This document shows positions 8,530-40,739 of a stretch of 64,000 bases of DNA, piece by piece (within the stretch, counting starts at the first letter, position 1; the number at the start of each line of letters is the position of its first letter). Source of the stretch: Siphonodentalium dalli (lineage: Eukaryota; Mollusca; Scaphopoda; Gadilida; Siphonodentaliidae); the NCBI GenBank assembly GCA_032622095.1, contig CP136061.1, positions 169,761,107 through 169,825,106 of the forward strand, read 5' to 3'. Both the position numbers and the translations under genes were made by a program. The notes below the pieces were generated by a model, which saw only the letters and a program-made list of their open reading frames with translations, made no database searches and was not told the DNA's origin.

Positions 8530-10484
8530 TAGTTAGGGAGCCCGCATATGTTCTATTTACACTTTTGCGTACAAAAGGTTTGACCCCCTAAAGTTGGTAC
8601 CAATAATGGAACATTCTGAAAAACCGATTTCTTAAGTTGCGCATTCCTGGGGTTTAGGGGCCGCTGAACCCCAAAAAGTGCCAAAAATCACTTCTATTTA
8701 CACTTCCGCGTACATCGATGAATTTTGGTTTGATGATACTCCTAAGTGTACTGATTAAGAAAACACAACTTAAGAAAGGGATTTTCCTGGGGTTTTCAGA
8801 TAAGAAAGTGGGTCCCATGCTGAACCCCAAAACGTGATTTTTCACTTTTTGTTATACTTTCGCGTACATCCATAATTTTTGGTCTCAAAGTACTTTGATA
8901 TATACTAATTATAAAAACACAACTTAAGAAGCAACTTTTCCTGGGGTTTTAAGATAAGAAGGGGGTCATCGGGTCACCCCTCAAAACGTAAAAAATCACT
9001 TTTATTTACATGATTGCATTCGTCCAACGTGTGTGTATGTGCGTACACCCCTGGAACGTTGCACTATTACAACCAATACATCCCTAAATCGATACGATCA
9101 ACTTAAGAAATATATATTCATGTCGTTTTCTGATAATGGTAAATATTGCCCCAGTGTGTCCTGCAATCGCTTACAAGTTGTGGTTGATGTACACAATTGA
9201 CTAATCTGTTTTCTATACATTGCATACTAACATGTCTGATGCACCATGGATCATTTTTACTATTGTCACCACTGACATCACCAGAAATATTGAATTTTTC
9301 TCTCACAAACTTGACATAAATATCGGCAAAAATTCACTTTTCAGGGTTCGATCATTTGTTCAAGTAAAATGTAACTATCTTTGGATTGAAAGGTATTTAT
9401 TGTTTTGGTCTATCTTAAATGTATCACACTACGGTGTTTATAGACTAAATTGCTCAAGATGGCTTCCAAAATGGCAACCAAATTTGTAAAAAGTTAAAAG
9501 TTAACATATCCCGAACATTATTCTCTGCATTATCCGAAAAAAGGTGGCAAATTGTGACTCACTTGGTTATTGTACGTGTTAGTTACAATGTAATTAACTG
9601 ACAACTACGTTCTATTATGTTTGTCCCAGTTCCGTGTGGGGCATGACAAATTCATTTTAAAGTTGCAGTATGGAATTTTGCGGAAAACCTCTTTTGTGCT
9701 TCTGGCCATATTATTGAAAGGGAATGGGCAGAACTTTGAGACGGAACTGAGATGAGCCATGATATGTGGGTATTCTGGCCCATTATGATAAAAAAATTAT
9801 CAACTGGATACAGGGTGGAAGTTAAGATGGCATCCAGGGAGTTACTCAATGATCATAGATGATGATAATAGGTATACACGGAGTTATTGTATGGTCATGA
9901 ATGATGTGTGGGTATAAAGGGAGTGCCCTGTTTGTAACGGTGGGACGTATATTTATATATGTTGTGGATGTGTTATCATTGGTGGTGTATGGGGAGTAGA
10001 TTTATTATCATGGATGGCGTGTATGAGTATGGCAAGTATGGAACCTGTGAGTGGTCGTATGTGCGGATATTGGTATATCTGGAGGGATCACCATTGGTGG
10101 TGTGCATATGTATACTTGGATTGACTCTATGGTCATGTGTACGGCGAATAGGTATACATGTAGTGGCTGTATGGTCCATCATGGTGAGGTGAATATGTAT
10201 ACAATGAGTGATTGTATGATCGTGAATGTAGTGAATGTGTATACATAGAGTGACTATATGGTCATGTGTCGGGTGTAGGTGTATACCTGGTGTTCATGCA
10301 TGGTGACTCGTGGCTGTATCGTCATTTGTGGTATGTACGGGTATAACCAAGTATAGGGCTGTACGATCAGGTGTACTAGTACATGTACGTGTATAAAGTG
10401 GGTGACTGTGTTGTCATTTGTGTGGTGTTTATGTACATATGGAGTGACTGGGGTAATGGGTGGGTTGTACATGTGTACCTTGGG

Positions 10485-10562
10485 CGGCTATCGCTTTCCA
10501 CAATAACTCAAGGATATGTTAATCAATAGAGAGGTCATGTCATATCGTGGAAAGCGATAGCC
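10485..10562. repeat. Central 78-bp hairpin of foldback copy 1
   Basis: CGGCTATCGCTTTCCAC at 10485-10501 pairs with GTGGAAAGCGATAGCC at 10547-10562 around a non-palindromic spacer. It sits where the minisatellite flips strand. The same hairpin occurs inverted in copy 3 and is missing in copy 2. Confidence 0.85.
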
Positions 10563-11350
10563 ACCCATTATCACACAGTCATTACATATATACATAAACA
10601 CCACAGACATAACAATATAGTGACCCACTGTATACATGTATACCTGACCCATGACCACGAATGACCATACAGCCACGCGTCACAATGCAGGCACACCGGG
10701 TATACTCCTAAACATGACACATAACCATATAGTCACTCCTTGTATATCCATTCATCTCACCATTGGCCATAAGGTCATCCCCTGTATACCTATTCTCCAA
10801 ACGCATGGTCAAATATACAATCAATATAAACATCAACACCACAACAATGACAATAAAGTCACTCCGGTATACATATGCACATCACCAATGGCCATATAGC
10901 CACTCGCTTCATACACATACCCTCACCCATGTTACCTGGTATACTCCTTCACCTGACCTATGGCCATATAGTCACCCCGTGTGTACCTATTCAAAACATT
11001 CATACACGATCATGGTCAATCCTTGTATACATATTCACCTCAACATTGGACATGTCAATACCTGTATCCCTATTTGTCACACCATAGCCGAATAGCCACT
11101 CAAGATATACTAATACACCCCAGCCATGACATGTCAGTATAGTCACTCCATGTATGCATATGCACCTCATCCATGACCATATAGCCACTCGCTATATACA
11201 CATGTCCCTCGCCAATGACAATAAAGCAACACGTGTGTGTACTGGTATAACCTACACATGACGATACCGACACGAGTCACCAAACAGAAACACCAGGTAC
11301 ATGTATACTCATACGCCTGTCACCCCCTGTATATATGTTCATTACATTTA

Positions 11351-12388
11351 TGATCATACAGTCACTACTTGTATACCTACATGTAACCATATCACCATTA
11401 ACCATACGGTCACTACATGTATACCTATTCGACACTCATAGTCACATAACCACTCGATATACATATGCAGCCCACCCTAGACCATAAATTCACTCCAGGT
11501 ATACATGTAAACCTCACGAATGGCCATTCAGCCCTTCCAGATATACAAAAAAAACGCACATACGACCACTCAAACAATCCATACTTGCATATACACCTCA
11601 CGCATGACAATTCAGCAATTCACTGTATAATCATACACGCCATCCATGATAATACAGCTAAGCCATATACACCCACCAATGATAATACATACACGAGATA
11701 TATAAATATACATCCCACCCGTTACCACAAGGACACTCACTATGTACCCACACGCTCGATAATGTCCACCCAGCTTACTCCAGGTATTCATATTCAATCA
11801 TGACCGTACAGTCATTCCATGTATACCTATACACATTACCCGTAACCATAACATCACACACCCCATCCATGATCATACAGTCACTACTTGTATACCTACA
11901 TGTAACCATATCACCATTAACCATACGGTCACTACATGTATACCTATTCGACACTCATAGTCACATAACCACTCGATATACATATGCAGCCCACCCTAGA
12001 CCATAAATTCACTCCAGGTATACATGTAAACCTCACGAATGGCCATTCAGCCCTTCCAGATATACAAAAAAAACGCACATACGACCACTCAAACAATCCA
12101 TACTTGCATATACACCTCACGCATGACAATTCAGCAATTCACTGTATAATCATACACGCCATCCATGATAATACAGCTAAGCCATATACACCCACCAATG
12201 ATAATACATACACGAGATATATAAATATACATCCCACCCGTTACCACAAGGACACTCACTATGTACCCACACGCTCGATAATGTCCACCCAGCTTACTCC
12301 AGGTATTCATATTCAATCATGACCGTACAGTCATTCCATGTATACCTATACACATTACCCGTAACCATAACATCACACACCCCATCCA
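11351..12388. repeat. Exact-looking 519-bp tandem duplication in the core
   Basis: The block starting TGATCATACAGTCACTAC at 11351 is repeated at 11870 with an offset of 519 bases. The repeated open frames translate identically, so the two blocks are essentially identical. Copies 2 and 3 have the corresponding segment once. It may be a recent duplication or an assembly artefact. Confidence 0.85.
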
Positions 12389-14578
12389 TGATCATACAGA
12401 CAACGCATGTACATCCCACCCATGACCTTACAGTCACTCCATATATACATAATCAACACATATATGACCATGTAGCTATATACATACACCACACCAATGA
12501 CCATACAGGCACACCGGGTGCACCCGTACTGGATATACACAATAATACACCATACAGTCACTCCATGCATACCGATTCACCTCACATCTGACCATGACCT
12601 CTCCCTGTATACCTAGATGCATCTTACCATGGACAACCCACTCATAACCATATAGTCACTCATTGTATACCTACTCACATCAGTCATGACATACAATAAC
12701 TCCCTGTATACCTATTCACCTCACATATGATCACAGAGTAACTCCCTGGCTACGATCTTGGCATCCACACTGTATCCTGTTGACATTTTTTTTATCATAA
12801 TGGACCAGAATAGCCAAAGATTATGGTCCATCTCAGTTCTGTCTCAAAGTTCTGCCCATTTCCTTTCAATAGATATGGCCAAAATCACAAAAGAGGTTCT
12901 CGGCAAAATTACATACATTAAAATGAATTTGTCATGCTCCATACGGAACTGGGACAACTGGGAATAGAACATGTAGTTGTCAGTTAATTAACTAACACGT
13001 ATAATAACCAAGTGAGTCACAATTTGCTACCTTTTCGGATAATGCAGAGAATGTTCGGGATATATGTAAAAAAAATTACATTTTGGAAGCCATCTTGAGC
13101 AATTTGGTCTATAAACACTGTAGTGCGACACATTTAAGATAGACCAAAGCAATAAACACCTTTCAATCCAAAGATAGTTATATTTTACCTGAAAAAATTG
13201 TCCAAACCTGAAAACTTAATTTTTGCCAATATTTATGTCAAGTTATTTAGAGAAAAGTCCAATATTTTTGACGATGTCATTGGTGAAAATAGTAACAATT
13301 AACCATGGTGCATCAGACATGTTAGTATTCAATGTATAGAATGCAGAATAGCCCATTTTATACATCAAAATACAACTTGTAAGCGATTGCAAGACACGCT
13401 GTGTAATATTTACCATTTTCCATATTTTGGCGGCCATATTGGCAGCCATTTTGAGCCAAAGTAAGAATTTTGGTTCCAGTGATTTGGAATATTCATAGGT
13501 AATGATATGCCTCACTTACATTACAAAGTTCTGCTCATTTCTTGTTGAAATATGAATAGAATCCCAATTGTATTTTTTTGTGAAATTTTATACCGCATTC
13601 TGTACAATCGAATTTTTGAGGGATCGGACCCCAATAATTACATATTTAATTGCTCCAATAATCAGTTAACATACAAAACACAAAATAAAGTTGCATTACT
13701 CAACCAGTTCCAAACAGCATGAACTGATCTAGAAGATATTTGTGAAAAAATGTCATATTTTCAACTTCCGGCGGCCATTTTGGTGGCCATCTTGGATGGT
13801 GAGTTTCAATTTTGGCCCAAAAAAGTGTCATTATGTCTTAGCTTCACGAAAATATATACATTTGTATACATTTTACTAGATTTTCGGCTATAATTTTCAT
13901 AAAACTGGCTCACTTATAGTTCTAGAAAATGGATCGGGTTGGGGGGGGGGGGGGGGTAACAAGTCTCGTTCTTATCAGAAAACGACATGAATATATATTT
14001 CTTGAGTTGATCGTATCGATTTAGGGATGTATTGGTTGTAATAGTGCAACGTTCCAGGGGTGTACGCACATACACACACGTTGGACGAATGCAATCATGT
14101 AAATAAAAGTGATTTTTTTACGTTTTGGGGGGTGACCCGATGACCCCCTTCTTATCTTAAAAGCCCAGGAAAAGTTGCTTCTTAAGTTGTGTTTTTATAA
14201 TTAGTATATATCAAAGTACTTTGAGACCAAAAATTATGGATGTACGCGAAAGTATAAAAAAAGGTTAAAAATCACGTTTTGGGGTTCAGCATGGGACCCA
14301 CTTTCTTATCTGAAAACCCCAGGAAAATCCCTTTCTTAAGTTGTGTTTTCTTTATCGGTACACTTAGGAGTATCATCAAACCAAAATTCATCGATGTACG
14401 CGGAAGTGTAAATAGAAGTGATTTTTGGCACTTTTTGGGGTTCAGCGGCCCCTAAACCCCAGGAATACGCAACTTAAGAAATCGTTTTTTCAGAATGTTC
14501 CATTATTGGTACCAACTTTAGGGGGTCAAACATTTTGTACGCAAAAGTGTAAATGGAACATATGCTCCCCAACTATCA

Positions 14579-16447
14579 GACAATTCAGAACAAGTGCCAC
14601 GGTATTGATCAAATCCAGCTGTTATATATGAATCACACTCACGCTAACAAATGATACCGGGCGCATTCCATAATTGGCTGAACAATTCATTAACGGAAAA
14701 CGACAGCCAACATATGAACTCTACAGCCATGTCGCATGATAACTGTTATCCGCAGCCTGAAGTTTACATTGACCCTGCAACAGGTGCAACGTTTGCGGAA
14801 CTTATATCGTCGGCTTCCCCTGATAATATGTATTTGGACCAAAGCCTGACATATTATCAGCAACCAATAAACTTGAATATGGCCCCATCAGACTTACAAA
14901 TGGCCATCAGCCAATTGAAGGATGTTTCAACTAATTTTGACTCAAATGAGGCATCGATGTCATCATCCGTGGCCGTTTCAGCCATCCTGATATTCCTGAA
15001 CTCAGATCCAAAGGATGTGATAATCGAATCAATAAAACAATCTGTCATACTCGATGGTGATATTGATGAAATCATATTAAGTAATATGAGAGATGTTGTT
15101 TTTTCCGAAGTAAAGGCCGATGCTTCATACATGTACGAGAATTCAAGTGTTCTAAAAAAAAGCGCCGTGATACCAGCACGAAAGGTGGCTCATCGCCATG
15201 CGACAAACTCGCCGACGATATTCACACTCTGCTGTTGTTTCTGGTAGACAGTTCCACATCAGTGACATCACTAACAGAATTAATAAGCAGCAGGAAAAAC
15301 AATTCACTTCCGTCATCAAAACACATTGATATTACTGCAACTACCACTGCCGTAAACTCTAAAGATTCAAAATGCAACGATGAATTCCGTTCAGACATCA
15401 TTGCCATCCTAAAGCAAAGTCAGGAAGTCACCGTCCTGATCCTTGGAAAATTGTCTTCTGTGGAAAATTCAATAACTAAGTTTGATCGGCAAATTGTTAG
15501 TATTGAGACAAAAATTGATGCCAAAAAATCGACGGAACATGATGATGTTGAATCCGAGCTGATTGAGATCAAGCAAACATTGTTCGAAGTGAGTGAAATT
15601 GTAACTCAAAATTCGCATCAAAATTCGCAAAAAATGGAAAATAATGATACTAAAATGCAGCGCTGCTTAGATGAAAAGCGTGACGGCTTAACAAATCTGC
15701 GTGTCCAAATTCTAACATTGGAAAGCGATATAGCAGAAACAATTGAAAAAGCACAAGGATTAGTTAACAGTGAATCGAAATAGTGGTTCAATTGGTACAC
15801 TGAAGGACAACTACAGACGCATGGCCGACAAGTCTGAATTCCAAGAAACTGAACACTTCGACTCACTAAAAGAAACTATAATTGAGTTTGGTCGATGTTT
15901 GTGCTGTCACCATGCGCTAGATGAACTAAGAGAAGAATTCCGTAATATGACGCGAAACACATATCCCGAACCACACAGGCCTACCCTAAATGGTGATATT
16001 TACAGTGTGATATCTGATGACGTTGACGAGTACGATAACCGATCAAAGAGCAATAACTCTAATTACCAGCATCGTAACACAACACCTCACACCAGTAACT
16101 CAAACTCAAACGGGCAGAACAGAAACGCTTATTCCTCTGGTATACACGACAATCATGACGTGTACAGAACACGGAATCGGCACCCCATTCAAACAACCAG
16201 ACTTTTTGTTGGAAATATTCCAGCAGACCATAGTGCAAAAATCATTGCCAATATACTATTCGACCAAAAGGTGAAATTATCCATTGTTCACCTATTCGGA
16301 CTCAGAAAAGATGGTACGAGAACTGCCCGTATTAATGTTCAGTGCTCAGATGCTGCCTTCTGCAAAGGTCCGGACTGTTGGCCCCGATATATTACCTGTT
16401 CAGACTGGGTACCATATGAAGACTTCATTGCGAGAAAACAGCTATAA
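14579..16447 (+). pseudogene. Non-LTR retrotransposon ORF1-like region, frameshifted
   Basis: Three open segments in successive frames (14651-15247, a segment running to 15783, and one running to 16447) read as one protein broken by at least two frameshifts, near 15175-15205 and near 15770-15783. The middle part is rich in Glu, Lys, Ser and Ile with a coiled-coil-like pattern. The last part has a low-complexity Asn/Ser/Thr stretch, then a compact domain beginning RLFVGNIP and ending near CWPRYITCSDW, like the RRM-like C-terminal domain of CR1/L2-type ORF1 proteins (family resemblance recalled, not searched). Such proteins bind element RNA. The stop codon TAA at 16445-16447 is also the target duplication of foldback copy 2. 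An endonuclease ORF resumes beyond that insertion, which supports the LINE assignment. The 5' untranslated part may continue left of 8530. Confidence 0.7.
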
Positions 16448-19400
16448 TAGTTAGGGAGCCCGCATATGTTCCATTTACACTTTTGCGTACAAAAGGTTTG
16501 ACCCCCTAAAGTTGGTACCAATAATGGAACATTCTGAAAAACCGATTTCTTAAGTTGCGCATTCCTGGGGTCTGCTGAACCCCAAAAAGTGCCAAAAATC
16601 ACTTCTATTTACACTTCCGCGTACATCGATGAATTTTGGTTTGATGATACTCCTAAGTGTACTGATTAAGAAAACACAACTTAAGAAAGGGATTTTCCTG
16701 GGGTTTTCAGATAAGAAAGGGGGTCCCATGCTGAACCCCAAAACGTGATTTTTCCCTTTTTTTTACACTTTCGCGTACATCCATAATTTTTGGTCTCAAA
16801 GTACTTAGATATATACTAATTATAAAAACACAACTTAAGAAGCAACTTTTCCTGGGGTTTTAAGATAAGAAGGGGGTCATCGGGTCACCCCTCAAAACGT
16901 AAAAAATCACTTTTATTTACATGATTGCATTCGTCCAACGTGTGTGTATGTGCGTACACCCCTGGAACGTTGCACTATTACAACCAATACATCCCTAAAT
17001 CGATACGATCAACTTAAGAAATATGTATTCATGTCGTTTTCTGATAAGAACGAGACTTGTTACCCCCCCCCCCCCCCCCCCCCCCCCCCACACAACACGA
17101 TCCATTTTCTAGAACTATAAGTGAGCCAGTTTTATGAAAATTATAGCGGGAAAATCTAGTAAAATGTATACAAATGGATATATTTTCGTGAAGCTAAGAC
17201 ATAATGACACTTTTTTGGGCCAAAATTGAAACTCACCATCCAAGATGGCCGCCGGAAGTTGAAAATATGACATTTTTTCACAAATATCTTCTAGATCAAT
17301 TCATGCTGCTTGGAACTGGTTGAGTAATGCAACTTTATTTTGTATTTTGTATATTAAACTGATCATTGGAGCAATTAAATATGCATTTATTGGGGTCCTA
17401 ACCCCTTCCGATCCCTCAAAAATTTGATTGTACAGAATGCGGTATAAAATTTCACACACAAAAATCACAATTGGGATTCTAGTCATATTTCAACAAGAAA
17501 TGTACAGAACTTTGTAATGTGAGTGAGGCATATCATTGCCTATGCATATTCCAAATCACTGGAACCAAAATTCTTACTTTGGCTCAACATGGCTGCCAAT
17601 ATGGCCGCCAAAATATGGAAAATGGTAAATATTACACCAGCGTGTCCTGCAATCGCTTACAAGTTGTGTTGATGTATAAAATTGGCCATTCTGCATTCTA
17701 TACATTGAATACTAACATGTCTGATGCACCATGGTTAATTGTTACTATTTTCACCACTGACATCGTCAAAAATATTGGACTTTTCTCTAAAAAAACTTGA
17801 CATAAATATTGGCAAAAATTCAGTTTTCAGGTTTGGACCATTTTTTCAGGTAAAATATAACTATCTTTGGATTGAAAGGTGTTTATTGTTTTGGTCTATC
17901 TTAAATGTGTCACACTACGGTGTTTATAGACCAAATTGCTCAAGATGGCTTCCAAAATGGCAACCAAATTTGTAAAATGCTAATTTTTTACATATATCCC
18001 GAACATTCTCTGCATTATCCGAAAAGGTAGCAAATTGTGACTCACTTGGTTATTATACGTGTTAGTTAATTAACTGACAACTACATGTTCTATTCCGAGT
18101 TGTCCCAGCTCCGTATGGGGCATGACAAATTCATTTTAATGTATGTAATTTTGCCGAGAACCTCTTTTGTGATTTTGGCCATATTTATTGAAAGGAAATG
18201 GGCAAACTTTGAGACAGAACTGAGATGGACCATAATCTTTGGCTATTCTGGTCCATTATGATAAAAAAAATGTCTACAGGATACAGTGTGGATGCCAAGA
18301 TCGTAGCCAGGGAGTTACTCTGTGATCATATGTGAGGTGAATAGGTCTGCAGGGAGTTATTGTATGTCATGACTGATGTGAGTAGGTATACAATGAGTGA
18401 CTATATGGTTATAAGTGGGTTGTCCATGGTAAGATGCATCTATGTATACAGGGAGAGGTCATGGTCAGGTGTGAGGTGAATCGGTATGCATGGGGTGACT
18501 GTATGGTGTATGATTGTGTATATCCAGTACGGGTGCATCCGGTGTGCCTGTATGGTCATTGGTGTGGTGTATGGATATAGCTACATGTTCATGTATGTGT
18601 TGATTATGTATATATGGAGTGAATGTAAGGTCATGGGTGGGATGTACATGTGTTGTCTGTATGATCATGGATGGGTTGTGTGGATAAATAGGTAGTGATT
18701 TTATGGTTACGGGTAATGTGTATAGGTATACATGGAATGACTGTACGGTCATGATTGAATATGAATACCTGGAGTAAGCTGGGTGGACATTATCGATCGT
18801 GTGGGTACATAGGAAGTGTCCTTGTGGTAACGGGTGGGATGTATATTTATATATATCGTGGATGTATTACCATTGGTGGGTGTATAGGACTTAGCTGTAT
18901 TATCATGGATGGCGTGTATGATTATACAGTGAATTGCTGAATTGTCATGTGTGAGGTGTATATGCAAGGATGGGTTGTTTGAGTGGTCGTATGTGCGGGT
19001 TTTTTTTTGTATATCTGGAAGGGCTGAATGGCCATTAGTGAGGGTTACATGTATACCTGGAGTGAATCTATGGTCTAGGGTGGGCTGCATATGTATATCG
19101 AGTGGTTATATGACTATGTGTGTCGAATAGGTATACAGGTAGTGAATGTATGGTTAATGGTGAGATGAGTACATGTAGGTATACAAGTAGTGACTGTATG
19201 ATCATAAATGTAATGCAAATCTATACAGGGGATGCCAGGCGTATGAGTATACATGTACCTGGTGTTCCTGTTTGGTGACTCGTGTCGGTATCGCCATGTG
19301 TATACCAGTACACACACGTGTTGCTTTATTGTCATGGGCGAGGGATATGTGTATATAGCGAGTGGCTATATGGTCATGGATGAGGTGCATATGCATACAT

Positions 19401-21909
19401 GGAGTGACTATACTGACATGGCTGGGTGTATTAGTATATATTGAGTGGCTATTCGGATATGGTGTGACAAATAGGGATACAGGGATTGCCATGGCCAATG
19501 TTGGGGTGAATATGAATACAAGGATTGACCACGATCGTGTATGAATGTTTTGAATAGGTACACACGGGGTGACTATATGGCCATAGGTCAGGTGAAGGAA
19601 TATACCAGGTAACATGTGTGAGGGTATGCGTATGAAGCGAGTGGCTATATGGCCATTGGTGATGTGCATATGTATACCGGAATGACTTTATGGTCATTGT
19701 TGTGGTGTTGATGTATATATTGATTGTCCATTTGACCATGCGTTTGGAGAATAGGTATACAGGGGATGACCTTATGGCCAATGGTGAGATGAATGGGTAT
19801 ACATGGAGTGACTATATGGTGAGCCCTTCCAGATATACCAATATCCGCACATACGACCACTCATAAGTTCCATACTTGCCATACTCATACACACCATCCA
19901 TGATAATAAACCTACTCTCCATACACCACCAATGATAACACATCCAAAACATATATAAATATACGTCCCACCGTTACCAACAGGGAACTCCCTATATACC
20001 AACACATCATTCATGACCATAGAATAACTCCCTGTATACCTATTATCCTCATCTATGATCATAACTCCCTGGCTACCATCTTGGCTTCCACCCTGTATCC
20101 AGTTGATAAATTGTTATCATAATGGGCCAGAATACCCACATATCATGGTTCATCTCAGTTCAGTCTCAAAGTTCTGCCCATTTCCTTTCAATGATATGGT
20201 TCTCCGCAAAATTCCATACTGCAACTTTAAAATGAATTGGTCATGCCCCATACGGAACTGGGACAAACATAATAGAACGTAGTTGTCAGTTAATTACATT
20301 GTAACTAACACGTACAATAACCAAGTGAGTCACAATTTGCCACTTTTTTCGGATAACGCAGAGAATAATATTCGGGATATGTTAACTTTTAACTTTTTAC
20401 AAATTTGGTTGCCATTTTGGAAGCCATCTTGAGCAATTTAGTCTATAAACACCGTAGTGTGACACATTTAAGATAGACCAAAACAATAAACACCTTTCAA
20501 TCCAAAGATAGTTACATTTTACTTGAACAAATGGTCGAACCCTGAAAAGTGAATTCTTGCCGATATTTGTGTCCAATATTTCTGGTAAATGTCAGTGGTG
20601 ACAATAGTAAAAATGATCCGTGGTGCATCAGACATGTTAGTATGCAATGTATAGAAAAGAGATTAGCCAATTGTGTACATCAACCACAACTTGTAAGCGA
20701 TTGCAGGACACCCTGGGGCAATATTTACCATTTTCCATATTTTAGCGGCCATTTTCGCAGCCATTTTGAGCCAAGGTAAGATTTATGGTTCCAGAGATTT
20801 GGAATATTCATAGGTAATGATATGCCTCACTTACATTACAATGTTCTTTTCATTTCTTGTTGAAATATGACTAGAATCCCAATTGTGATTTTTTGTAAAA
20901 GTTTGTACTGCGTTCTGTAAAATCGATTTTTTTAGGGATTGGAAGGGGTTAGGACCCCAATAAATGCATATTTAATTGCTCCAATGATCAGTTAATATAA
21001 AAAACACAAAATAAAGTTGCATTACTCAACCAGTTCCAAACAGCATGAATTGATCTAGAAGATATTTGTGAAAAAATGTCATATTTTCAACATTCGGCGG
21101 CCATTTTGGCGGCCATCTTGGATGGTGAGTTTCAATTTTGGCCCAAAAAAGTGTCATTATGTCTTAGCTTCACGAAAATATATACATTTGTATACATTTT
21201 AATAGATTTTCGCGCTATAATTTTCATAAAACTGGCTCACTTACAGTTCTAGAAAATGGATCGTGTTGTGGTTTGGGGGGGGGGGGGGTAACAAGTCTCG
21301 TTCTTATCAGAAAACGACATGAATATATATTTCTTAAGTTGATCGTATCGATTTAGGGATCTATTGGTTGTAATAGTGCAACGTTCCAGGGGTGTACGCA
21401 CATACACACACGTTGGACGAATGCAATCATGTAAATGAAAGTGATTTTTTACGTTTTGAGGGGTGACCCGATGACCCCCTTCTTATCTTAAAACCCCAGG
21501 AAAAGTTGCTTCTTAAGTTGTGTTTTTATAATTAGTATATATCAAAGTACTTTGAGACCAAAAATTATGGATGTACGCGAAAGTGTAAAAAAAAGGGAAA
21601 AATCACGTTTTGGGGTTCAGCATGGGACCCCCTTTCTTATCTGAAAACCCCAGGAAAATCCCTTTCTTAAGTTGTGTTTCTTAATCAGTACACTTAGGAG
21701 TATCATCAAACCAAAATTCATCGATGTACGCGGAAGTGTAAATAGAAGTGATTTTTGGCACTTTTTGGGGTTCAGCGGCCCCTAAACCCCAGGAATGCGC
21801 AACTTAAGAAATCGGTTTTTCAGAATGTTCCATTATTGGTACCAACTTTAGGGGGTCAAACCTTTTGTACGCAAAAGTGTAAATGGAACATATGCGGGCT
21901 CCCTAACTA
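16448..21909. mobile_element. Foldback element, copy 2 (about 5.5 kb, most complete arms)
   Basis: It starts TAGTTAGGGAGCCCGC and ends GCGGGCTCCCTAACTA, a perfect inverted pair. The left arm 16448 to about 18320 matches the right arm from about 20060 to 21909 in reverse complement with few differences. A TAA at 16445-16447 and 21910-21912 is the 3-bp target duplication. A poly-C tract (17065-17089) and the matching poly-G tract (21275-21288) sit at mirrored positions. No transposase is encoded. The host sequence on the two sides belongs to one LINE, so the insertion is younger than that LINE. Confidence 0.9.
18320..20060. repeat. Minisatellite core of foldback copy 2
   Basis: Units of about 55-60 bp with GTATACATGGAGTGACT and ATGGTCATGGGTG-type segments run in one sense to about 19820. 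They then flip at GGTGAGCCCTTCCAGATATACC and run inverted to about 20060. The central hairpin of copies 1 and 3 is deleted here. Open frames inside are repeat by-products. Confidence 0.8.
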
Positions 21910-22002
21910 TAACGTTTCGTGCACATTGCTAACCTCCCGTATATGCCAAACTTATCACTTTGGCTTGCACGTATCCGTTATCTGTTGAATTAATTCTATC
22001 CT

Positions 22003-27561: not shown

Positions 27562-27567
27562 AATAAA
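27562..27567 (+). promoter_or_regulatory. Possible polyadenylation signal AATAAA
   Basis: AATAAA lies 68 bases after the stop of the NRF1-like frame. Such hexamers are frequent in AT-rich DNA, so support is modest. Confidence 0.3.
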
Positions 27568-28357: not shown

Positions 28358-29150
28358 CTAGAGCATGTATATACATTGCCTAATCTCCGGAATATTTGAT
28401 ATGGGTTTATACTATTCAATAAGAAAAATAGATCAACTTTCTGGCATGCCCAACATTTATACATATGTTCACTGTGTTAGTTGGATTCTCGGTAGGCAGA
28501 ACTTCCTTCTCGGGGAGCTGGCCATATGTACCACAGCAGTGAAATTGAAAATTATGGCAGAAATCCCACCCGCAATCTGCCGCAATCCAAATTAAATTGA
28601 AAGTTTGGGTAGATAATTCACCCCCATTTTCAATTTAGAAAAAACTTCCCCTGTATGCAACCAAATCCTTGATTAGACCTCTGCAATTTTAAATTTTAAT
28701 TCGATCTATGTTGTGTTCCATCAAGATGGCTATAACAAATTCAGCTATTTTAATGGTCATTGGACGTGAGAAGCATATATCAATGTTTTTTGTTTGACCC
28801 AATGCATATATATTATTACCCCATTAATTATTGTAAACAGAAAGTAGATATTTTGAAAATACTGTGCACCAAAATTGGTGACAACAACAAACCACTATTA
28901 CAGGGAGATGAAGATAAATATGAGCAAATGGAGTATAAGAATACTTAAAATAGTAATTAGAATAATAGTTGCTAGTAAAAAATATTGTGAAAAGGGCAAT
29001 GATTAATAGAATACATTGAGTTGTTAGCTGTGAAAAGTCTCCGAATTAGCACATGTCCACATTTCATATGAGGATCGGAAACGAGAACGAGGAAGTGAGG
29101 TTGCTAATGGTAGACTAGAGTATGAACTAAAGCATTATTTTAATTAATGC
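28358..29150. other. Non-coding interval
   Basis: AT-rich sequence with no recognised gene, RNA or transposon end. Confidence 0.4.
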
Positions 29151-29154
29151 TTAA

Positions 29155-29725
29155 AGGGGTACTGTACGCCAAATGTTGTTGTTGGTTTCTATAGTCTCCG
29201 AGTCTGAGAATAAGGTAACACTTTTTTCATTATTTGAAAGTCTGTTGAGTACGAAGTAGTGTTACGGATGACAAATTTACCGGAATGCAAAAATACAAAT
29301 TGTCGTTGTCGAGTAATTTTTGTACAGTTTTCAACCAAATGAATCAAATAAAAGTTATATTATAGGCATACTAGTCCCATATAATCATTTAAGTTATTGT
29401 ATCGTCGCTAGTCAGTGAGTGGCTTGAGTGTTCTCCCCGTATCATCATAATATTTTAAGCGATCGGTTTAACAAGCCAGTATCCCTCATTTACTTTATTT
29501 GATTACGCAAATTCGTAATTTAATTGACACCATTTTATGGCTCCAGTCATAAATTCAATTTATATCAAATTATTAACTTTTAAATTATTAAATTTTAAGA
29601 TAGCCTATTAACCTGAGCGTTTACAGAATACATCTTCGACTCAAATTACTTATGTTTCTATATATTATCGATATTAGATCGTTGTTGTCACCGGAAATTT
29701 AATGAAAATGGCGTACAGTACCCCT
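29155..29725. mobile_element. 571-bp MITE flanked by TTAA
   Basis: AGGGGTACTGTACGCC starts at 29155 and its inverse, GGCGTACAGTACCCCT, ends at 29725. Each is bordered by TTAA (29151-29154 and 29726-29729). TTAA duplication with short inverted ends is the hallmark of piggyBac-type insertion. The interior is AT-rich and non-coding. Confidence 0.85.
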
Positions 29726-29729
29726 TTAA

Positions 29730-30269
29730 ATTTCCAGTGGGGGGGGGGGGGGGGGCTGATGTGACTGATTTCCTCTAGCATCCTTAACACTAAATTTTGT
29801 TAAATAAATAAATAATAAGGAAGCTGGCTGTCATGGCTTCATGAATTTCAAACAAACTTTGAATCTACTTTTAATCACACGTTTGCTTCTTCAAGATTAT
29901 GGACCATATGGCACATATTGTACCTTATTTTAACAGCTAAATAATAGTGCAATTCACCAAAGTGATCACCTATCATTATTAATTACAGGATGATCTCAGG
30001 TATCTATCCGTTGTCAGTGTTGACAATCGCTTGAATCACTGACGAAGCCAAAATCACCAGATCACGGCAAACGATCGAAGCAAAAAAAAGAGGTTATTTT
30101 CTACAATTTAAATATTAAAAGATTCATATAAACTGGCTGAGTCATGACAAATAGTTTATATAACATTGCTTCTTTCTTTAATTTGAAGCTAACCTCGTTA
30201 AAACGCATGGTAATGATCGTTAATCGTATTCGTTTTCATTTCATTTCATGGACATGCGGTAGTTAGTTT
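29730..30269. other. Non-coding interval with poly-G tract
   Basis: A G-homopolymer lies at about 29739-29755. An inverted pairing around ACTGACGAAG near 30040 is too weak to call. No gene is seen. Confidence 0.4.
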
Positions 30270-32716
30270 GTTTATCACACTTGACCCCTGACCTGAAAAA
30301 TTCCGCGCATGCGTACTTGAAACATCTACTTGGCTTATTTCGGAAATCAAACGAAAAACACATCCAACAACTTGATGATCGTCTTGATAGATTAGCAGAA
30401 ATGGATATTAACGCCTTTTTTAGAATCTTCAATAAAGATAGAGGTATCACGTCAAATTATCTATTTGAAGTAAATAGTTCCACACTAAGAGAACCAAGTG
30501 ACGTGATACAAGCATGGGCATCTTACTTTGAAAATTAACCTCTATTCCCCATTAGTCAGCGATGACTTCGACGAAAACCACCATACATATGTCAATAACC
30601 AAGTCGAAGAACTATCGCAGCTTCTCGAAACATCAGACCTTGATACCGAACTATGCTATGAAATTTCTTTAGAAGAACTTAAAAACGTACTGAAATCCGC
30701 CAAAAAAGGCAAAGCTCCCGGATTCGATTCATTGTGTTATGAGCACATTGTACATGGTGGTGATTTCCTCCAGCTCTCAATAGTTAGGCTCTTGTCGAAA
30801 ATGCTAAAATTCAATCACGTACCCGCACAAGCAAAAGTTGGCATGATAATTCCTCTATATAAAGGAGGAAACAAACCCAAAAATCAGTTTGACAGTTACC
30901 GCGCCATCACATTGCTTCCTGATATATCCTATACAAGATATTTGAGAAAATAATTCTCGTGCGCCTTGAAACCAATACCCCCCCCCCCCCCAACTCATGA
31001 AAGTGCACCCTCTTCAACATGGTTTCCAAAAAGGAATTAGCTGTTTAAACTCCTCATTTATAATACATGAATCAATATCGTTCACAGCCGAAAATCATAG
31101 TACCTTATTTGTATGTTTCTTAGATGTCCATAAAGCCTTTGATACGGTTTGGACTAACAGACTTCTTCTCAAACTATATCAGCGTGGCTTCCAAGGGAAA
31201 ATTTGGCACATCGTCAACTCCCTCTTATGTGGATTAAAGTGCTCTGTCCGGTTCAATGGCTGTGTTTCTCACCTTTTCGAAATACAACAGGGAACCAGAC
31301 AGGGCAGTATCTTGTCCCCTCTGTTCTACATGATATTCATTGACGACCTTATACACTCTTGAACAGAGCAAATATGGCTTGCGCTTTGGCTCCTCATTTT
31401 GTGTATCACCAACCCAAGCAGATGACATGACTCTACTGACTTTAACCGCTCCGGGTCTACAACTACTGTGTAACATATGTAGTTCATTCAGTCAAAAATG
31501 GAGATTCAAATATAACCAAGACAAATGTAAAATAATAGTGTTCAATGAGAGCACATCCGTTCAAACATCTAGAAGTACAAAATCGTGGCTTATAAATGGA
31601 AAACCTATTCATGAGTCGAACCAAGTTACGCATCTTGGTATTCCCCTCAATAACAAGGATCAGATGGAAAACCTCACTAATCACATTTGTCAGAAACTTA
31701 GAGCATCATATTTCATGCTGAGCAATGTGGGTATTTATGCTGGGGGAAGAACTCCACTTAGTTCAAACATGTTATATAACACAATTGTCGTACCAAGAGG
31801 CCTATATGGGAGCGAATTTCTTTGCGGCATATCCACAACGAACGAAAATTCATTGGAAAAAACCCATCGATTTTGCCTAAAACAAATTCAAGGGCTCCCA
31901 TATAGGACCCAAACTGATGTTGCACTGGGCCTCCTAGGCACATTCCCCATTACGGCCCTCATTGACAAACGCAAACTCGTACTACTCGGAAGTCTTTGTA
32001 GAACATCCCTGATCAAATCTTCAAAAGAAATTTTCATGTCGTTTAGACACCGCCATCAGAGGGGACGCTTTAAGCGAGCATTCATTTATATCAGATATAA
32101 TTTTAATCTTGGAGAAATACAATCTCAAATCACATTTAATTGCCTTCGTTGAAAACGAGAATTTCCCACCGAAGGAAGCATGGAAGCAGCTAGTCTGCCA
32201 GGGAGTATCACACTTCCAGGAAGCGGCATGGAAAGCGCGTCTTCATAGAAAAGTTCACTTCAACACTTTTCAGATAGCTATAGCTCACTGGCTGTTTCGC
32301 CCTTATGGTTCACATGTAGAGCTTATCCACAATACAAAGTTCAATTCCTTGAAATAGCGAAGCTCTTAGCAAAATCCGTGATTCCCGAAAACAGAAAGTG
32401 TTTGCTCTGTAATAAACAATACAGCAACAAAGTTGAACACAGCATCATTGTCTGTCCAGACATATCTGCCGCAAGGTACGACATGTGGTTCACACTTCTT
32501 GAACATTTTGACATCCCTTGCTTCATAGAAATCGACAAGCTCACCACCTACGAGCAGATGATGATATTTCTGTCATGCATCCCACCACATGTTAGGGAAA
32601 AAATAACAGATATTAACAAATTTATTATATTTATAACAAGGAGTACGCCCCGCATGTGGAACGATTATCACGAGCTGCTCCGGGCATATGATGATATCAT
32701 ACCTGTTATTCCATGA
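30270..32716 (+). pseudogene. Non-LTR retrotransposon ORF2, reverse transcriptase and C-terminus (5'-truncated)
   Basis: Successive open segments in shifting frames encode the reverse transcriptase of a second LINE copy. In order: the linker (YLKHLLGLFRKSNEKHIQQL, 30281-30535); KKGKAPGFDSLCYEHI and MIIPLYKGGNKPKN (30528-30953); HPLQHGFQKGIS, FLDVHKAFDTVW with the catalytic Asp, and GTRQGSILSPLFY (30997-31362); QADDM carrying the catalytic Asp pair (31340-32152); then a thumb region and a C-terminal CLLCNKQ...H...C zinc-knuckle-like motif (32378-32716). Frameshifts lie near 30530, 30955-30997 (where a poly-C run has grown), 31350, 32110-32150 and 32360. The enzyme would copy element RNA at the nicked target. 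Clade looks CR1/L2-like, by eye. The linker duplicates the one at 23600-23770, so this is not the missing half of the first LINE in a simple sense. Confidence 0.85.
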
Positions 32717-33085
32717 TTATATTATAGCAATGTAGTGCAAATAATGCATGCACCCGTCCGAGTATCCCAACTACAATATATTATGGTGCGTATCATCGAT
32801 TTAGTTTTGTCAATATAGCATCTTATCCCAATATTCCGAAACCCCATACTCTCGTGCTAAACAGGTACATCGTCTATACACTTGTGCCTGAATTCTCACA
32901 ATATATTATTGAATAATTGATAAAATTAAAACCGTAGATATTATTATCATGAATGTCCTTCTGTGCTTGACTTACTGTACATACTCACTTGATGTATTCT
33001 TTCTTGTGTTATTGTTCATTTGTATCGTTATTTGTATACATTTATTCTAAGCTCTCCGTTACATGGAGGAAATAAAGGATTATAT
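32717..33085 (+). mobile_element. 3' untranslated region and AT-repeat tail of the second LINE
   Basis: After the last open segment comes AT-rich sequence with GGAGGAAATAAAGGATT followed by an (AT)n run at about 33076-33090. A 3' end made of a short tandem repeat is common in CR1/L2-type LINEs. It abuts the interior of foldback copy 3 directly. Confidence 0.6.
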
Positions 33086-33859
33086 ATATATAATTTTTGG
33101 TCTCAAAGTACTTTGATATATACTAATTATAAAAACACAACTTAAGAAGCAACTTTTCCTGGGGTTTTAAGATAAGTAGGGGGTCATCGGGTCACCCCTC
33201 AAAACGTAAAAAATCACTTTTATTTACATGATTGCATTCGTCCAACGTGTGTGTATGTGCGTACACCCCCTGGAACGTTGCACTATTACACCCAATACAT
33301 CCCTAAATCAATACGATCAACTTAAGAAATATATATTCATGTCGTTTTCTGATAAGAACGAGACTTGTTACCCCCCCCCCCCCCCACAACCCGATCCATT
33401 TTCTAGAACTATAAGTGAGCCAGTTTTATGAAAATTATAGCGGGAAAATCTAGTAAAATGTATACAAATGTATATATTTTTGTGAAGCTAAGACATAATG
33501 ACACTTTTTTGGCATATCATTACCTATGAATATTCCAAATCACTGGAACCAAAATTCTTACTTTGGCTCAAAATGGCTGCCAATATGGCCGACAAAATAT
33601 GGAAAATGGTAAATATTACACCAGCGTGTCCTGCAATCGCTTACAAGTTGTGTTGATGTATAAAATTGACTATTCTGCATTCTATACATTGAATACTAAC
33701 CTGTCTGATGCACCATGGTTAATTGTTACTATTTTCACCACTGACATCGTCAAAAATATTGGACTTTTCTCTCACAAACTTGACATAAATATTGGCAAAA
33801 ATTCAGTTTTCAGGTTTGGACCATTTTTTCAGGTAAAATATAACTATCTTTGGATTGAA

Positions 33860-35475
33860 CAGGGGGGGGGGGAGGGTCTGGAAAAAAATTGCACATATAT
33901 ATAAGGCCCAAAAAGTTTTTTCCCGACCTCTAGGGACCCACCACCCCATTTTTGCAAAAAAAATATTTTTTTTCCTCCAAAATTTTTCCTCCTATGCATT
34001 GTTCGACTTTATGTTTCTCATGTTTTTATAAAAATTTCAGAGGTTTTTTTTAGCCGTTCTTCAATAACTGTGTTAACTGCCTTACTAATTGGTAAACACA
34101 TACCAGAAAAACGAAAAATATACTGTATTTCCATGTGTTTCCTGCATGGTGTTTTCAGTATCTAACAACAATATTAATTAAGCATTGCAGGCTGTTGCAG
34201 GTACACTACATGTCACAAATTGCCCTAGACCCCATTATAGCCTTAATATATCGAGTGTGTTGTGTCTGACAGAGAACACTGGCCAGTGTAAATAGTGGTA
34301 AACAGGTCAGGGGTTCCACAATTATATATGCATGATCAAAGAACTCTTTAGTCTTATCCAACGGGATGGGGTGGGAGGGGAATTGTTGTTTGGTTATGTA
34401 TACACATAGATATATGGTTATTATACTGCTCGATATTAGTCGGCGGATATATAGTTGACGTCTCGAGCCGTCTGTCCGTACAAACATTTTGAATTTTAAC
34501 TCAAGAGTCAGTTGTCATAATTGATGACCTATGGCATGGTGACGGACCAGAAATGGGGGACGAATATGCATAATATCGCGGGTTGTGACCACCAATGCCT
34601 ACCAGAGTTATGGGCCTTGTTCGACTTTATGAAATTCAGTCCATACAAAGTTTTTGCAATATAAGTTAAGTGTCGGTTGTCATTTCTCAATGCATCTGAA
34701 TGCATCACATTATTTCAGTTCATCTATTTGTAAGTGATAACAGTATACAATCAGTATTTTAGTTTCGTCTTGTTGAGCAGTAAAGCTCCCAGATGAAGTT
34801 CGGAAATTCAATGAGAATAGCGTCACCTTAGTTGGGATTGTCTGAGCAGTAAACAGTTAACGGTCATTCATCATAACCAATTCAGTTTTATTTGGATAAT
34901 TGTTGCAAATTAACATTACTTGCAATCATTCAAGATGAGAAATAACCAGAAGGAATGAATTTGATTACATGCCAGAACAAGACAGTATTTCAGACATTAG
35001 AAATTTAAGAGATACCCTTTTCAATTTCATGTTATGCAACAATCAGGTTAATGATATCTACTAGTAGTCATCATTGAGTATTCACCATGTAGTATCCAAT
35101 TAGTGATAGAGTTTTTTTGTTTTATTACTTTTATTCAGATAATATATTAATTTTGTTACTAAATATTTCTTCCGTTGATCATAAGTTTCCTGAACGTTAA
35201 TACGGTGGTCCACTGTGAAGTGGTCCGGGATACTGTGAAATCCAGAATGTTGCTAAATCTGAGGCTAAAGAGTCACTTTAGCTGCCTATATAGCCCTATA
35301 CCAACAAGCATGGTACTAACATGCTTACAAACAACATTACATGGTCAGTACTTGTAAATTGTTTGAAAAAAACCCATTTTGGAAAAAAATTACAAGCACC
35401 ATTTTTTCCGCCTCTGGACCACCCACCCACCCCGGGCCCTATATACGGAATTTTTTTGCAAACCCCCCCCCCCTG
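33860..35475. mobile_element. hAT-like non-autonomous element (1.6 kb) nested in foldback copy 3
   Basis: The ends are imperfect inverted repeats of about 50 bp: CAGGGGGGGGGG then GGGTCTGGAAAAAAATTGC on the left, and the inverse of GGGTTTGCAAAAAAATTCCG on the right. GATTGAA flanks both sides (33853-33859 and 35476-35482); counting a shared G gives the 8-bp GGATTGAA. The uninterrupted target is seen in copy 2 (CTTTGGATTGAAAGGTG). CAGGG ends with a 7-8 bp duplication fit hAT. No transposase frame is visible. Confidence 0.8.
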
Positions 35476-35947: not shown

Positions 35948-36520
35948 TTATTATCCATCCCTTAACTAACACCATTTCCGATTGGGAAAAAGCCGCCACG
36001 TGATAGTACTGGAAAAAGTCATATTGGACTCCCGAAAGTCATATTGGACTCCCGACTGTACAATATGACTTTTCATATTGGACTCCGTGACGTCACGAAT
36101 TAACTCTATTGCGAAATGAATCGGTGAAATTGTGATGCGCGCGCAACATTGATGGATTTTAGCAGACGTTTCACTTCCGCATTGAGTTATTTCTCACTTC
36201 CGTGTTTACTTTTCCAAATCATGCTTTCTGATGATCAATATACGGTACAGGATTTTATAGAGAATTAAGTGCCGACAAATACCAAAAATAACCACAAACG
36301 TTTTATTTCCAAAATTTGGATAAACATACAGATGGATAATAAAAATGTCATTATACAATGTTGTGTACAGTATGAGTTTTTCTTGTACTCGTCCAGGTTG
36401 TGGTGAAAAGTCATATTGGACTCGACACTGGCGTGTCTCGTCCAATATGACTTTTCACCACAACCTGAACTCATACAAGAAAAACACATACTGTACACAA
36501 CATTGTATAATGACTTTATA
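35948..36520. mobile_element. 573-bp insert with a 78-bp-armed inverted repeat
   Basis: Comparison with copy 2 (GGGAGTTATTGTATGTCATG) shows that 35948-36520 is an insertion. It contains an inverted repeat at 36347-36514 (GTCATTATACAATG ... CATTGTATAATGAC). The motif CATATTGGACTC or its inverse occurs at least five times, three of them clustered near 36020-36090. A possible TTAT target duplication is not exact. It is non-coding. Confidence 0.7.
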
Positions 36521-38880
36521 GTATGTCATGACTGATGTGGGTAGGTATACAATGAGTGACTGTATGGTTATGAGTGGGTTGTCCATGGTAAGATGCATCT
36601 AGGTATGCAGGGAGAGGTCATGGTCTGGGGTGAATCGGTATGCATGTAGTGACTGTATGGTGTATGAATGTGTATATCCAGTTTGGGTGCACCCGGTGTG
36701 CCTGTATGGCCATTGGTGTGGTGTATGGATATAGCTACATGGTCATCTATGTGTTGATTATGTATATATGGAGTGACTAAGGTCATGGGTGGGATGTACT
36801 GTGTACATGTGTTGTCTGTATGATCATGGATGGGGTGTGTGGATAAATAGGTAGTGATTTTATGGTTAGGGTAATGTGTATATGTATACATGGAATGACT
36901 GTACGGTCATGATTGAATATGAATACCTGGAATAAGCTGGGTGGACATTATCGAACGTGTGGGTACATAGGGAGTGTCCTTGTGGTAACGGGTGGGATGT
37001 ATATTTATATATCTCGTGGATGTATTATCATTGGTGGGTGTATAGGGCTTAGCTGTATTACCATGGATGGCGTGTATGTTTATACAGTGAATTGCTGAAT
37101 TGTCATGTGTGAGGTGTATATGCAAGTATGGATTGTTTGAATGGTCGTATGTGCGGGTTTTTTGTATATCTGGAAGGGGTGAATGGCCATTAGTGAGGTT
37201 TACATGTATACCTGGAGTGAATCTATGGTCTTAGGGTGGGCTGCATATGTATATCGAGTGGTTGTATGACTATGTGTGTCAAATAGGTATACAGGTAGTG
37301 ACTGTATGTTTAATGGTGATATGAGTACATGTAGGTATACAAGTAGTGACTGTATGATCATAAATGTAATGAACATCTATACAGGGGTTGACAGGCGTAT
37401 GAGTATACATGTACCTGGTGTTCCTGTTTGGTGACTCGTGTCGGTATCGTCATGTGTAGGTTATACCAGTACACACACGTGTTGCTTTATTGTCATGGGC
37501 GAGGGATATGTGTATATAGCGAGTGGCTATATGGCCAAGGATGAGGTGCATATGCATACATGGAGTGACTATACTGACATGGCTGGGTGTATTAGTATAT
37601 CTTGAGTGGCTATTCGGCTATGGTGTGACAAATAGGGATACAGGGATTGACATGGCCAATTTTGAGGTGAATATGTATACAAGGATTGACCATGATCGTG
37701 TATGAATGTTTTGAATAGGTACACATGGGGTGACTATATGGCCATAGGTCAGGTGAAGGAGTATACCAGGTATTAAACATGGGTGAGGGTATGTGTATGA
37801 AGCGAGTGGCTATATGGCGATGTGCATATGTATACCGGAGTGACTTTATGGTCATTGTTGTGGTGTTGATGTATATATTGATTGTATATTTGACCATGCG
37901 TTTGGAAAATAGGTATACATGGATGATGACCTTATGGCCAATGGTGAGATGAATGGGTATACAAGGAGCGACTATATGGTTATGGGTCATGTTTAGGAGT
38001 ATACCCGGTGTGCCTGCATTGTGACGCGTGGCTGTATGGTCATCCGTGGTCATGGGTCAGGTGTACATGTATACAGTGGGTCACTATATTGTTATGTCTG
38101 TGGTGTTTATGTATATATGTAATGACTGTGTGCTAATGGGTGGCTATCGCTTTCCACGATATGACATGACCTCTCTATTGATTAACATATCCTTGAGTTA
38201 TTGTGGAAAGCGATAGCCACCCAAGGTACACATGTACAACCCACACATTACCCCAGTCATATGTACATAAACACCACACAAATGACAACATAGTCACCCA
38301 CTTTATACATGTACATGTACTAGTACACCTGATCATACAGCCATACTTGGTTATACCCGTACATACCACAAATGACGATACAGCCACGAGTCACCATGCA
38401 TGAACACCAGGTATATACCTACACCCAACACATGACCATATAGTCACTCTATGTATACATATTCACTACATTCACGATCATACAGTCACTCATTGTATAC
38501 ATATTCACATCACCATGGACCATACAGCCACTACATGTATACCTATTCGCCATACCCATGACTATAGAGTCAATCCAGGTATACATATGCACATCACCAA
38601 TGGTGAGCCCTTCCAGATATACCAATATCTGCACATACGACCACTCATAAGTTCCATACTTGCCATACTCATACACGCCATCCATGATAATAAATCTACT
38701 TCCCATACACCACCAATGATAACACATCCACAACATATATAAATATACGTCCCACCATTACCAACAGGGCACTCCCTATATACCCACACATCATTCATGA
38801 CCATACAATAACTCCCTGTATTATCTATTACCTATTATCCTCATCTATGATCATAGAGTAACTCCCTGTATAAACTCATC
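36521..38880. repeat. Minisatellite core of foldback copy 3 with central hairpin
   Basis: The same degenerate 55-60 bp units as in copies 1 and 2 run in one sense to about 38140 and inverted from about 38221. Between them is the hairpin GGCTATCGCTTTCCAC ... GTGGAAAGCGATAGCC (38142-38218). Open frames in this segment are repeat by-products. Confidence 0.8.
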
Positions 38881-40739
38881 TTGGCTTCCACCCTGTATCC
38901 AGTTGATAAATTTTTATCATAATGGGCCAGAATACCCACATATCATGGTTCATCTCAGTTCCGTCTCAAAGTTCTGCCCATTTCCTTTCAATAATATGGC
39001 CAGAATCACAAAAGAGGTTCTCCGCAAAATTCCATACTGCAACTTTAAAATGAATTTGTCATGCCCCATACGGAACTGGGACAAACATAATAGAACGTAG
39101 TTGTCAGTTAATTACATTGTAACTAACACGTACAATAACCAAGTGAGTCACAATTTGCCACCTTTTTCGGATAACGCAGAGAATAATGTTCGGGATATGT
39201 TAACTTTTAACTTTTTACAAATTTGGTTGCCATTTTGGAAGCCATCTTGAGCAATTGAGTCTATAAACACCGTAGTGTGACACATTTAAGATAGACCAAA
39301 ACAATAAACACCTTTCAATCCAAAGATAGTTACATTTTACTTGAACAAATGGTCGAACCCTGAAAAGTGAATTTTTGCCGATATTTATGTCAAGTTTGTG
39401 AGAGAAAAATCCAATATTTCTGGTGATATCAGTGGTGACAATAGTAAAAATGATCCATGGTGCATCAGACATGTTAGTATGCAATGTATAGAAAACAGAT
39501 TAGCCAATTGTGTACATCAACCACAACTTGTAAGCGATTGCAGGACACCCTGGGGCATATATTTACCATTTTCCATATTTTGGCGGCCATTTTCGCAGCC
39601 ATTTTGAGCCAAGGTAAGATTTATGGTTCCAGAGATTTGGAATATTCATAGGTAATGATATGCCTCACTTTACAGTACAATGTTCTTTTCATTTCTTGTT
39701 GAAATATGACTAGAATCCCAATTGTGATTTTTTTTTAAAGTTTGTACTGCGTTCTGTAAAATCAAATTTTTGAGGGATCGGAAGGGGTTAGGACCCCAAT
39801 AATTGCATATTTAATTGCTCCAATGATCAGTTAATATACAAAACACAAAATAAAGTTGCATTACTCAACCAGTTCCAAACAGCATGAATTGATCTAGAAG
39901 ATATTTGTGAAAAAAATGTCATATTTTCAACTTCCGGCAGCCATCTTGGATGGTGAGTTTCAATTTTGGCCCAAAAAAGTGTCATGTCTTAGCTTCACGA
40001 AAATATATACATTTGTATACATTTTATTAGATTTTCCCGCTATAATTTTCATAAAACTGGCTCACTTATAGTTCTAGAAAATGGATCGGGTTGTGGGAGG
40101 GGGGGGGTTACAAGTCTCGTTCTTATCAGAAAAGACATGAATATATATTTCTTAAGTTGATCGTATCGATTTAGGGATGTATTGGTTGTAATAGTGCAAC
40201 GTTCCAGGGGTGTGCGTACATACGCACACGTTGGACGAATGCAATCATGTAAATAAAAGTGATTTTACGTTTTGAGGGGTGACCCGATGACACCCTTCTT
40301 ATCTTAAAACCCCAGGAAAAGTTGCTTCTTAAGTTGTGTTTTTATAATTAGTATATATCAAAAGTACTTTGAGACAAAAATTATGGATGTACGCGAAAGT
40401 GTAAAAAAAAAGGTGAAAAATCACGTTTTGGGGTTCAGCATGGGACCCCTCTTTCTTATCTGAAAACCCCAGGAAAATCCCTTTCTTAAGTTGTGTTTTC
40501 TTAATCAGTACACTTAGGAGTATCATCAAACCAAAATTCATCGATGTACGCAGAAGTGTAAATAGAAGTGGCATTTTTTGGAGTTCAGAGGCCCCTAAAC
40601 CCCAGGAATGCGCAACTTAAGAAATTGGTTTTTCAGAATGTTCCATTATTGGTACCAACTTTAGGGGGTCAAACCTTTTGTATGCAAAAGTGTAAATAGA
40701 ACATATGCAGGCTCCCTAACTAATAGAGCTCTGAGTATC

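What the first reader, a model, noticed from the sequence alone, without database searches (positions are those of the whole stretch)
8530..40722. A family of giant foldback elements with minisatellite cores and 3-bp target duplications
Three copies share inverted termini TAGTTAGGGAGCCCGC, arms of about 1.3-1.9 kb, and a core that is itself an inverted minisatellite. Target duplications are TCA and TAA for copies 1 and 2; copy 3 has a right flank of ATA with the left end lost. No copy encodes a transposase. The combination of near-palindromic architecture, multi-kilobase arms and a 3-bp duplication does not fit an element type I can name. The sequence structure is directly visible; novelty is inference.
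Basis: partly seen in the sequence, partly recalled or inferred. Interest (0 to 1): 0.78.

Follow-up and report, generated by a model that had tools for sequence, protein, structure and literature searches.

The report
Giant non-coding foldback DNA transposon family
The window holds three copies of a 6.1-kb mobile DNA element that is almost a giant palindrome and encodes no protein; it has spread to well over a thousand places in this animal-like 2.2-Gb genome, so it is a real and rather unusual selfish element, but of an already known general kind (foldback, non-autonomous DNA transposons).

Summary
The terminus TAGTTAGGGAGCCCGC occurs 1,163 times in the source genome (reversed control: 4). 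Full copies are about 6.1 kb: 1.95-kb terminal inverted repeats and a core of diverged 42-bp minisatellite units in opposite orientations around a small hairpin. Nineteen of 24 paired copies have exact 3-bp target duplications. The TAA duplication of window copy 2 is proved by 22 uninterrupted copies of the host LINE; three were read and carry a single TAA. Two subfamilies are 0.4-1.0% diverged internally, so transposition was recent. No copy read, including the long pairs, carries a transposase, and the ORFs show no coding signature. Relatives diverged by about 15% and 30% keep the same arms and core: an old, persistently non-coding lineage with about 1,900 core copies. The outer 600 bp (four 154-bp units) hardly changed between subfamilies (0.5% versus 3.8% inside; p=8e-12), although post-insertion mutations fall evenly, so the ends are the working, probably transposase-binding, part. 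Best reading: a giant foldback-type non-autonomous TIR transposon moved in trans by an unidentified transposase. Architecture resembles FB, Galileo and Tetris, but duplication length and termini differ, so superfamily membership is open. New variant of a known kind.

The parts
8527..8529 (.). copy 1 left target duplication TCA
   Evidence: sequence
8530..14575 (-). foldback element copy 1 (6046 bp; minus relative to reference copy L014), internally rearranged, direct internal duplication 11350-11880/11869-12399
14576..14578 (.). copy 1 right target duplication TCA
   Evidence: sequence
16445..16447 (.). copy 2 left target duplication TAA (empty site present in 22 other LINE copies)
16448..21909 (+). 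foldback element copy 2 (5462 bp; young subfamily A, 0.4% from L015; about 0.6 kb of core deleted)
16448..17047 (+). outer arm of copy 2: four diverged 154-bp tandem units, left
21304..21909 (-). outer arm of copy 2: four diverged 154-bp tandem units, right
18390..19995 (.). minisatellite core of copy 2 (42-bp period, inverted halves)
21910..21912 (.). copy 2 right target duplication TAA
33090..40722 (+). foldback element copy 3, left 342 bp lost against a LINE 3' end, interrupted at 33864-35473 and 35952-36515, internal deletion of arm positions 770-1089
40723..40725 (.). copy 3 right flank ATA (left partner lost)

Best explanation
The three features are copies of one family of non-autonomous cut-and-paste DNA transposons of foldback architecture. 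An unidentified transposase, encoded elsewhere, recognises the outer 600 bp of both ends (terminus TAGTTAGGGAGCCC plus four 154-bp units), excises the element and inserts it with a 3-bp staggered cut at mostly A/T-rich targets. The inner arms and the 42-bp minisatellite core are non-coding cargo that is carried along because each new burst starts from a full-length copy. Shown: mobility, exact ends, 3-bp duplications, an empty site, recent bursts, lack of coding, constraint or homogenisation of the ends. Inferred: a DDE-type transposase acting in trans, binding to the 154-bp units, and the core being passive cargo.
For: 1,163 termini in the genome versus 4 for the reversed control. Paired full copies of 5.85-6.12 kb with identical ends. 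Exact 3-bp duplications in 19 of 24 pairs: TAA x5, ATA x4, TTA x2, and ACT, TAT, TTT, CAT, TCT, CCA, TTG, TCA once each. 22 full-length hits to the joined copy 2 flanks, three of which were read and hold a single TAA at the site. Nine copies within 0.4-1.0% of each other and a second group within 0.5-0.7%. ORFs are not conserved and show no third-position excess. Outer 600 bp: 6/1200 differences between subfamily consensuses versus 184/4846 inside (Fisher p=8e-12), while within-subfamily mutations are even (33/10628 versus 154/43132, p=0.52). Older relatives share terminus, 154-bp units, inner arms and core.
Against: No transposase-bearing copy with these ends was found. The search for one was incomplete: only about 300 kb of the 2.2-Gb genome could be read, and a partner sharing fewer than 14 terminal bases would be missed. 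Five of 24 pairs lack a matching duplication; two of these are compound or nested structures.
Confidence: 0.88

Rival explanations
1. The element is autonomous: the repetitive core encodes a low-complexity protein (repeats such as THDHTVTPCIHIHP) needed for its own movement.
For: The 42-bp period is 14 codons, so open frames up to 161 aa exist in the core.
Against: The frames lie in several phases and on both strands; the longest are open in 1 to 10 of 16 copies; differences show no third-position excess; the Pfam scan of window ORFs found no transposase domain (the purely repetitive core ORFs were not scanned).
Confidence: 0.03
2. The copies are not transposons but palindromes or segmental duplications made by foldback repair or template switching.
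For: One genomic copy (L011) has about 205 bp of its flank duplicated in inverted orientation, and another locus is a compound of two elements, so foldback rearrangement does happen.
Against: Unrelated flanks, exact ends, 3-bp duplications in 19 of 24 pairs, and a TSD-collapsed empty site.
Confidence: 0.02
3. The element is a non-autonomous member of a particular known superfamily that makes 3-bp duplications: PIF/Harbinger, EnSpm/CACTA, Academ or Zator. (A refinement of the best explanation rather than its opposite.)
For: These superfamilies make duplications of about 3 bp (own knowledge; PIF/Harbinger: PMC2213677). CACTA-type Transposase_21 domains are plentiful in this genome (78 matches).
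Against: Targets are not the TWA of Harbinger (TAA or TTA in only 7 of 19). Ends are not CACTA/CACTG. The motif is absent from the eight Transposase_21 loci read, 3.6 kb each, element ends not reached. No ISAzo13-type DDE (the Zator relative) matched, but that search also rang in no control.
Confidence: 0.4

Closest known systems
Tetris (Drosophila virilis foldback element, PMC4079207)
   Same: Long TIRs (up to 1,735 bp) with internal tandem repeats (about 220 bp), middle domain without coding capacity, apparently non-autonomous
   Different: 8-10 bp target duplications, few structurally complete copies, different sequence; here 3 bp, a tight 6.1-kb length class, more than a thousand copies and a 42-bp inverted minisatellite core
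Galileo (P superfamily, PMC3573991, PMC3688188)
   Same: Long, internally repetitive TIRs (up to 1.25 kb); many non-autonomous TIR-TIR copies; the tandem units carry multiple transposase THAP binding sites, the model applied here to the 154-bp units
   Different: 7-bp duplications, transposase-bearing copies known; none found here
Tm1 (Mutator/foldback, Meloidogyne, PMC3169594)
   Same: Composite foldback TIRs, groups without transposase
   Different: 9-bp duplications and a known transposase-encoding group; low copy number
Classical Foldback FB of Drosophila melanogaster
   Same: Giant inverted repeats made of short tandem repeats
   Different: 9-bp duplications (own knowledge) and, as far as known to me, unrelated ends

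Membership tests
Foldback-type non-autonomous TIR DNA transposon (architectural class) | Long inverted repeats with internal tandem repeats | tested here: met
   1.95-kb arms at 88-92% in most full copies, outer 600 bp = four 154-bp units
Foldback-type non-autonomous TIR DNA transposon (architectural class) | Mobile: dispersed copies with exact ends and target duplication, empty site | tested here: met
   19 of 24 pairs with 3-bp duplications; 22 uninterrupted LINE copies, single TAA read in three
Foldback-type non-autonomous TIR DNA transposon (architectural class) | No own transposase; an autonomous partner with the same ends exists | tested here: inconclusive
   No coding found; no partner found in the part of the genome that could be read
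FB / Galileo / Tm1 / Tetris | 7 to 10 bp target duplication | tested here: not met
   Duplication is 3 bp
PIF/Harbinger | 3-bp TWA duplication | tested here: not met
   TAA or TTA in only 7 of 19 duplications; ATA, TCT, CCA, TTG, ACT and others occur
EnSpm/CACTA | CACTA/CACTG-type termini | tested here: not met
   Termini are TAGTTAGGG
EnSpm/CACTA | Partner element with Transposase_21 and the same ends | tested here: inconclusive
   78 Transposase_21 matches in the genome; motif absent from the eight loci read, but the ends of those elements were not reached
Zator | Transposase related to ISAzo13-type DDE | tested here: inconclusive
   No match to PF07592, but it rang in no control genome either
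Academ | Academ-type transposase with shared TIR ends | not tested
   No model or library entry available here

The most novel reading that the evidence does not exclude
The TAGTTAGGGAGCCC ends with 3-bp duplications belong to an undescribed DNA-transposon superfamily, and the non-coding 6-kb foldback with its minisatellite core has persisted as a lineage in its own right through several rounds of amplification because its architecture is itself selected, for example for synapsis of many transposase molecules or for escape from silencing.
Probability: 0.2. Interest if true: 0.65.

Novelty: new variant of a known kind. Interest (0 to 1): 0.42.

Why it matters
It is a well-defined, recently active and abundant giant non-coding foldback family with 3-bp target duplications. 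Members of different age all keep the same arms and minisatellite core, so the question why some transposons keep kilobase-long repetitive inverted ends can be addressed by comparison. The contrast between conserved outer ends and evenly mutated copies points directly to the functional end region.

Tried and rejected
Long pairs of termini (9.2 kb L035, the 12.3-kb L009+L010 pair, and L036, L037) were read in the hope of a transposase-bearing copy: all are nested insertions or compound copies. Patterns for the terminus followed by non-family sequence gave only family variants and older relatives. The related end at C8:126027156 (L041) had no recognisable transposase among its ORFs, by inspection only. 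The transposase-like 397-aa ORF at window 25676-26869 lies in a different transposon with ends AGGTCAGRGGTCAAGTGTGATAA, not this family.

Full report
Observation. The terminus TAGTTAGGGAGCCCGC is found at 8530+, 16448+, 21894- and 40707- of the window (0.11 expected). Copy 1 is 8530-14575 with target duplication TCA; copy 2 is 16448-21909 with TAA; copy 3 ends at 40722 with right flank ATA. Copy 3 begins at arm position 343 at base 33090, directly against the 3' end of a LINE, and is split by two later insertions.

Genome-wide anatomy. The window lies in a 2.23-Gb genome of nine contigs, where the terminus occurs 1,163 times with at most one mismatch, against 4 for the reversed control. Fifteen paired loci were fetched in full. 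Simple copies are 5.85-6.12 kb, with arms of about 1.95 kb, 88-92% identical between left and right in most copies. From the tip inward: the terminus; four diverged 154-bp tandem units (outer 600 bp); a poly-C tract; an inner arm; then a core of diverged 42-bp units, in opposite orientation in the two halves, around a small hairpin with stem GGCTATCGCTTTCCAC.

Target duplications and empty site. Nineteen of 24 copies with both ends read have identical 3-bp flanks: TAA 5, ATA 4, TTA 2, and ACT, TAT, TTT, CAT, TCT, CCA, TTG, TCA once each. Copy 2 sits between ORF1 and ORF2 of a LINE. The joined flanks with one TAA match 22 other LINE copies over their full length, and three of these were read and show ...GCTATAACGT... 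with a single TAA. This is a TSD-collapsed empty site.

Age and activity. Nine copies, including window copy 2, differ pairwise by 0.4-1.0% (subfamily A), three others by 0.5-0.7% (subfamily B), and A and B by 3.2-3.9%. This star-like pattern means recent bursts. A core marker 20-mer occurs 1,924 times (reversed control 0). Of 100 exact cores on contig 1, only 28 have an exact terminus nearby. Four cores without ends were probed at the expected end positions: none shows the family's own end, and one shows a related end TAGTCGGGGAGCC. One core without ends was read and is an older copy, 83-86% identical to the same inner arm and core, cut by another insertion. A still older group with ends TAGTTAGGGAGCCCAGCAAG shares 154-bp units and inner arms at 65-76%, and one member (L063) also the minisatellite core at 70-73%. 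The same non-coding architecture has therefore persisted through several rounds of amplification.

Which part works. Between subfamilies A and B the outer 600 bp differ at 0.5% of sites and the rest at 3.8% (6/1200 versus 184/4846, Fisher p=8e-12), although mutations acquired after insertion are even (33/10628 versus 154/43132, p=0.52). Left and right arms are almost identical in the outer 600 bp and diverge inwards, to more than 30% at the core edge. Either selection in the source copies or end-biased conversion keeps the ends uniform; in both cases the outer arm is the likely functional unit. By analogy with Galileo, whose tandem units carry multiple transposase binding sites (PMC3688188), the 154-bp units are the likely binding array. 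This step is inference.

No coding. The longest frames in the element are about 100-160 aa in the repetitive core, on both strands, not conserved between copies, without the third-position excess that coding would give. Pairs of termini further apart than usual turned out to be nested or compound copies. Patterns for ends followed by foreign sequence returned only this family and its older relatives.

Mechanism. The best account is a non-autonomous cut-and-paste element mobilised in trans by a transposase that makes 3-bp staggered cuts. The source transposase was not found. The genome has many CACTA-type transposases, but the ends of those elements could not be read, their terminal motif would be expected to be CACTA/CACTG, and the eight loci read do not contain this motif. 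PIF/Harbinger is disfavoured by non-TWA targets. Zator was tested without a working control; Academ could not be tested.

Comparison. FB, Galileo, Tm1 and Tetris share the long, internally repeated inverted ends and many non-autonomous copies, but their duplications are 7 to 10 bp and their sequences differ. The element works like these and belongs to the foldback architectural class; it is not a member of any of those families. Within what could be tested it is a new variant of a known kind. Repbase and Dfam were not available, so an existing unclassified entry cannot be excluded.

Noticed in passing
window 23770-30298: A separate, probably once autonomous DNA transposon (27-bp ends with AGGTCAGRGGTCAAGTGTGATAA, a SAP-like ORF at 24145+ and a 397-aa transposase-like ORF at 25676-26869-, no Pfam match) inserted in the RT region of the LINE.
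   Followed up: partly
window 14648-33089: A full-length-like LINE (ORF1, APE endonuclease, RT) that has been hit by three different elements, including foldback copy 2, and whose 3' end truncates foldback copy 3.
   Followed up: partly
window 23030-23528: A roughly 0.5-kb insertion with inverted arrays of a 16-bp unit GGGGCCGACTTCGCGC at both ends, MITE-like, inside LINE ORF2.
   Followed up: no
window 5888-7824 and 57546-59127: Two arrays of the same 164-bp minisatellite in inverted orientation 50 kb apart, containing CAAGATGGC motifs that also occur in the foldback arms.
   Followed up: no
L001/L002 (G000:C1:10683785-10690037): A foldback copy whose 205-bp left flank is repeated in inverted orientation at its right side, next to a 183-bp terminal fragment of another copy: a foldback rearrangement product.
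   Followed up: partly
G000:C5:35.57-35.78 Mb and 42.04-42.40 Mb (L058, L059, L061): Clusters of short elements (about 1.5-1.8 kb) with related ends TAGTTAGGGAGCCCAGAAAG, apparently in a larger duplicated array.
   Followed up: partly
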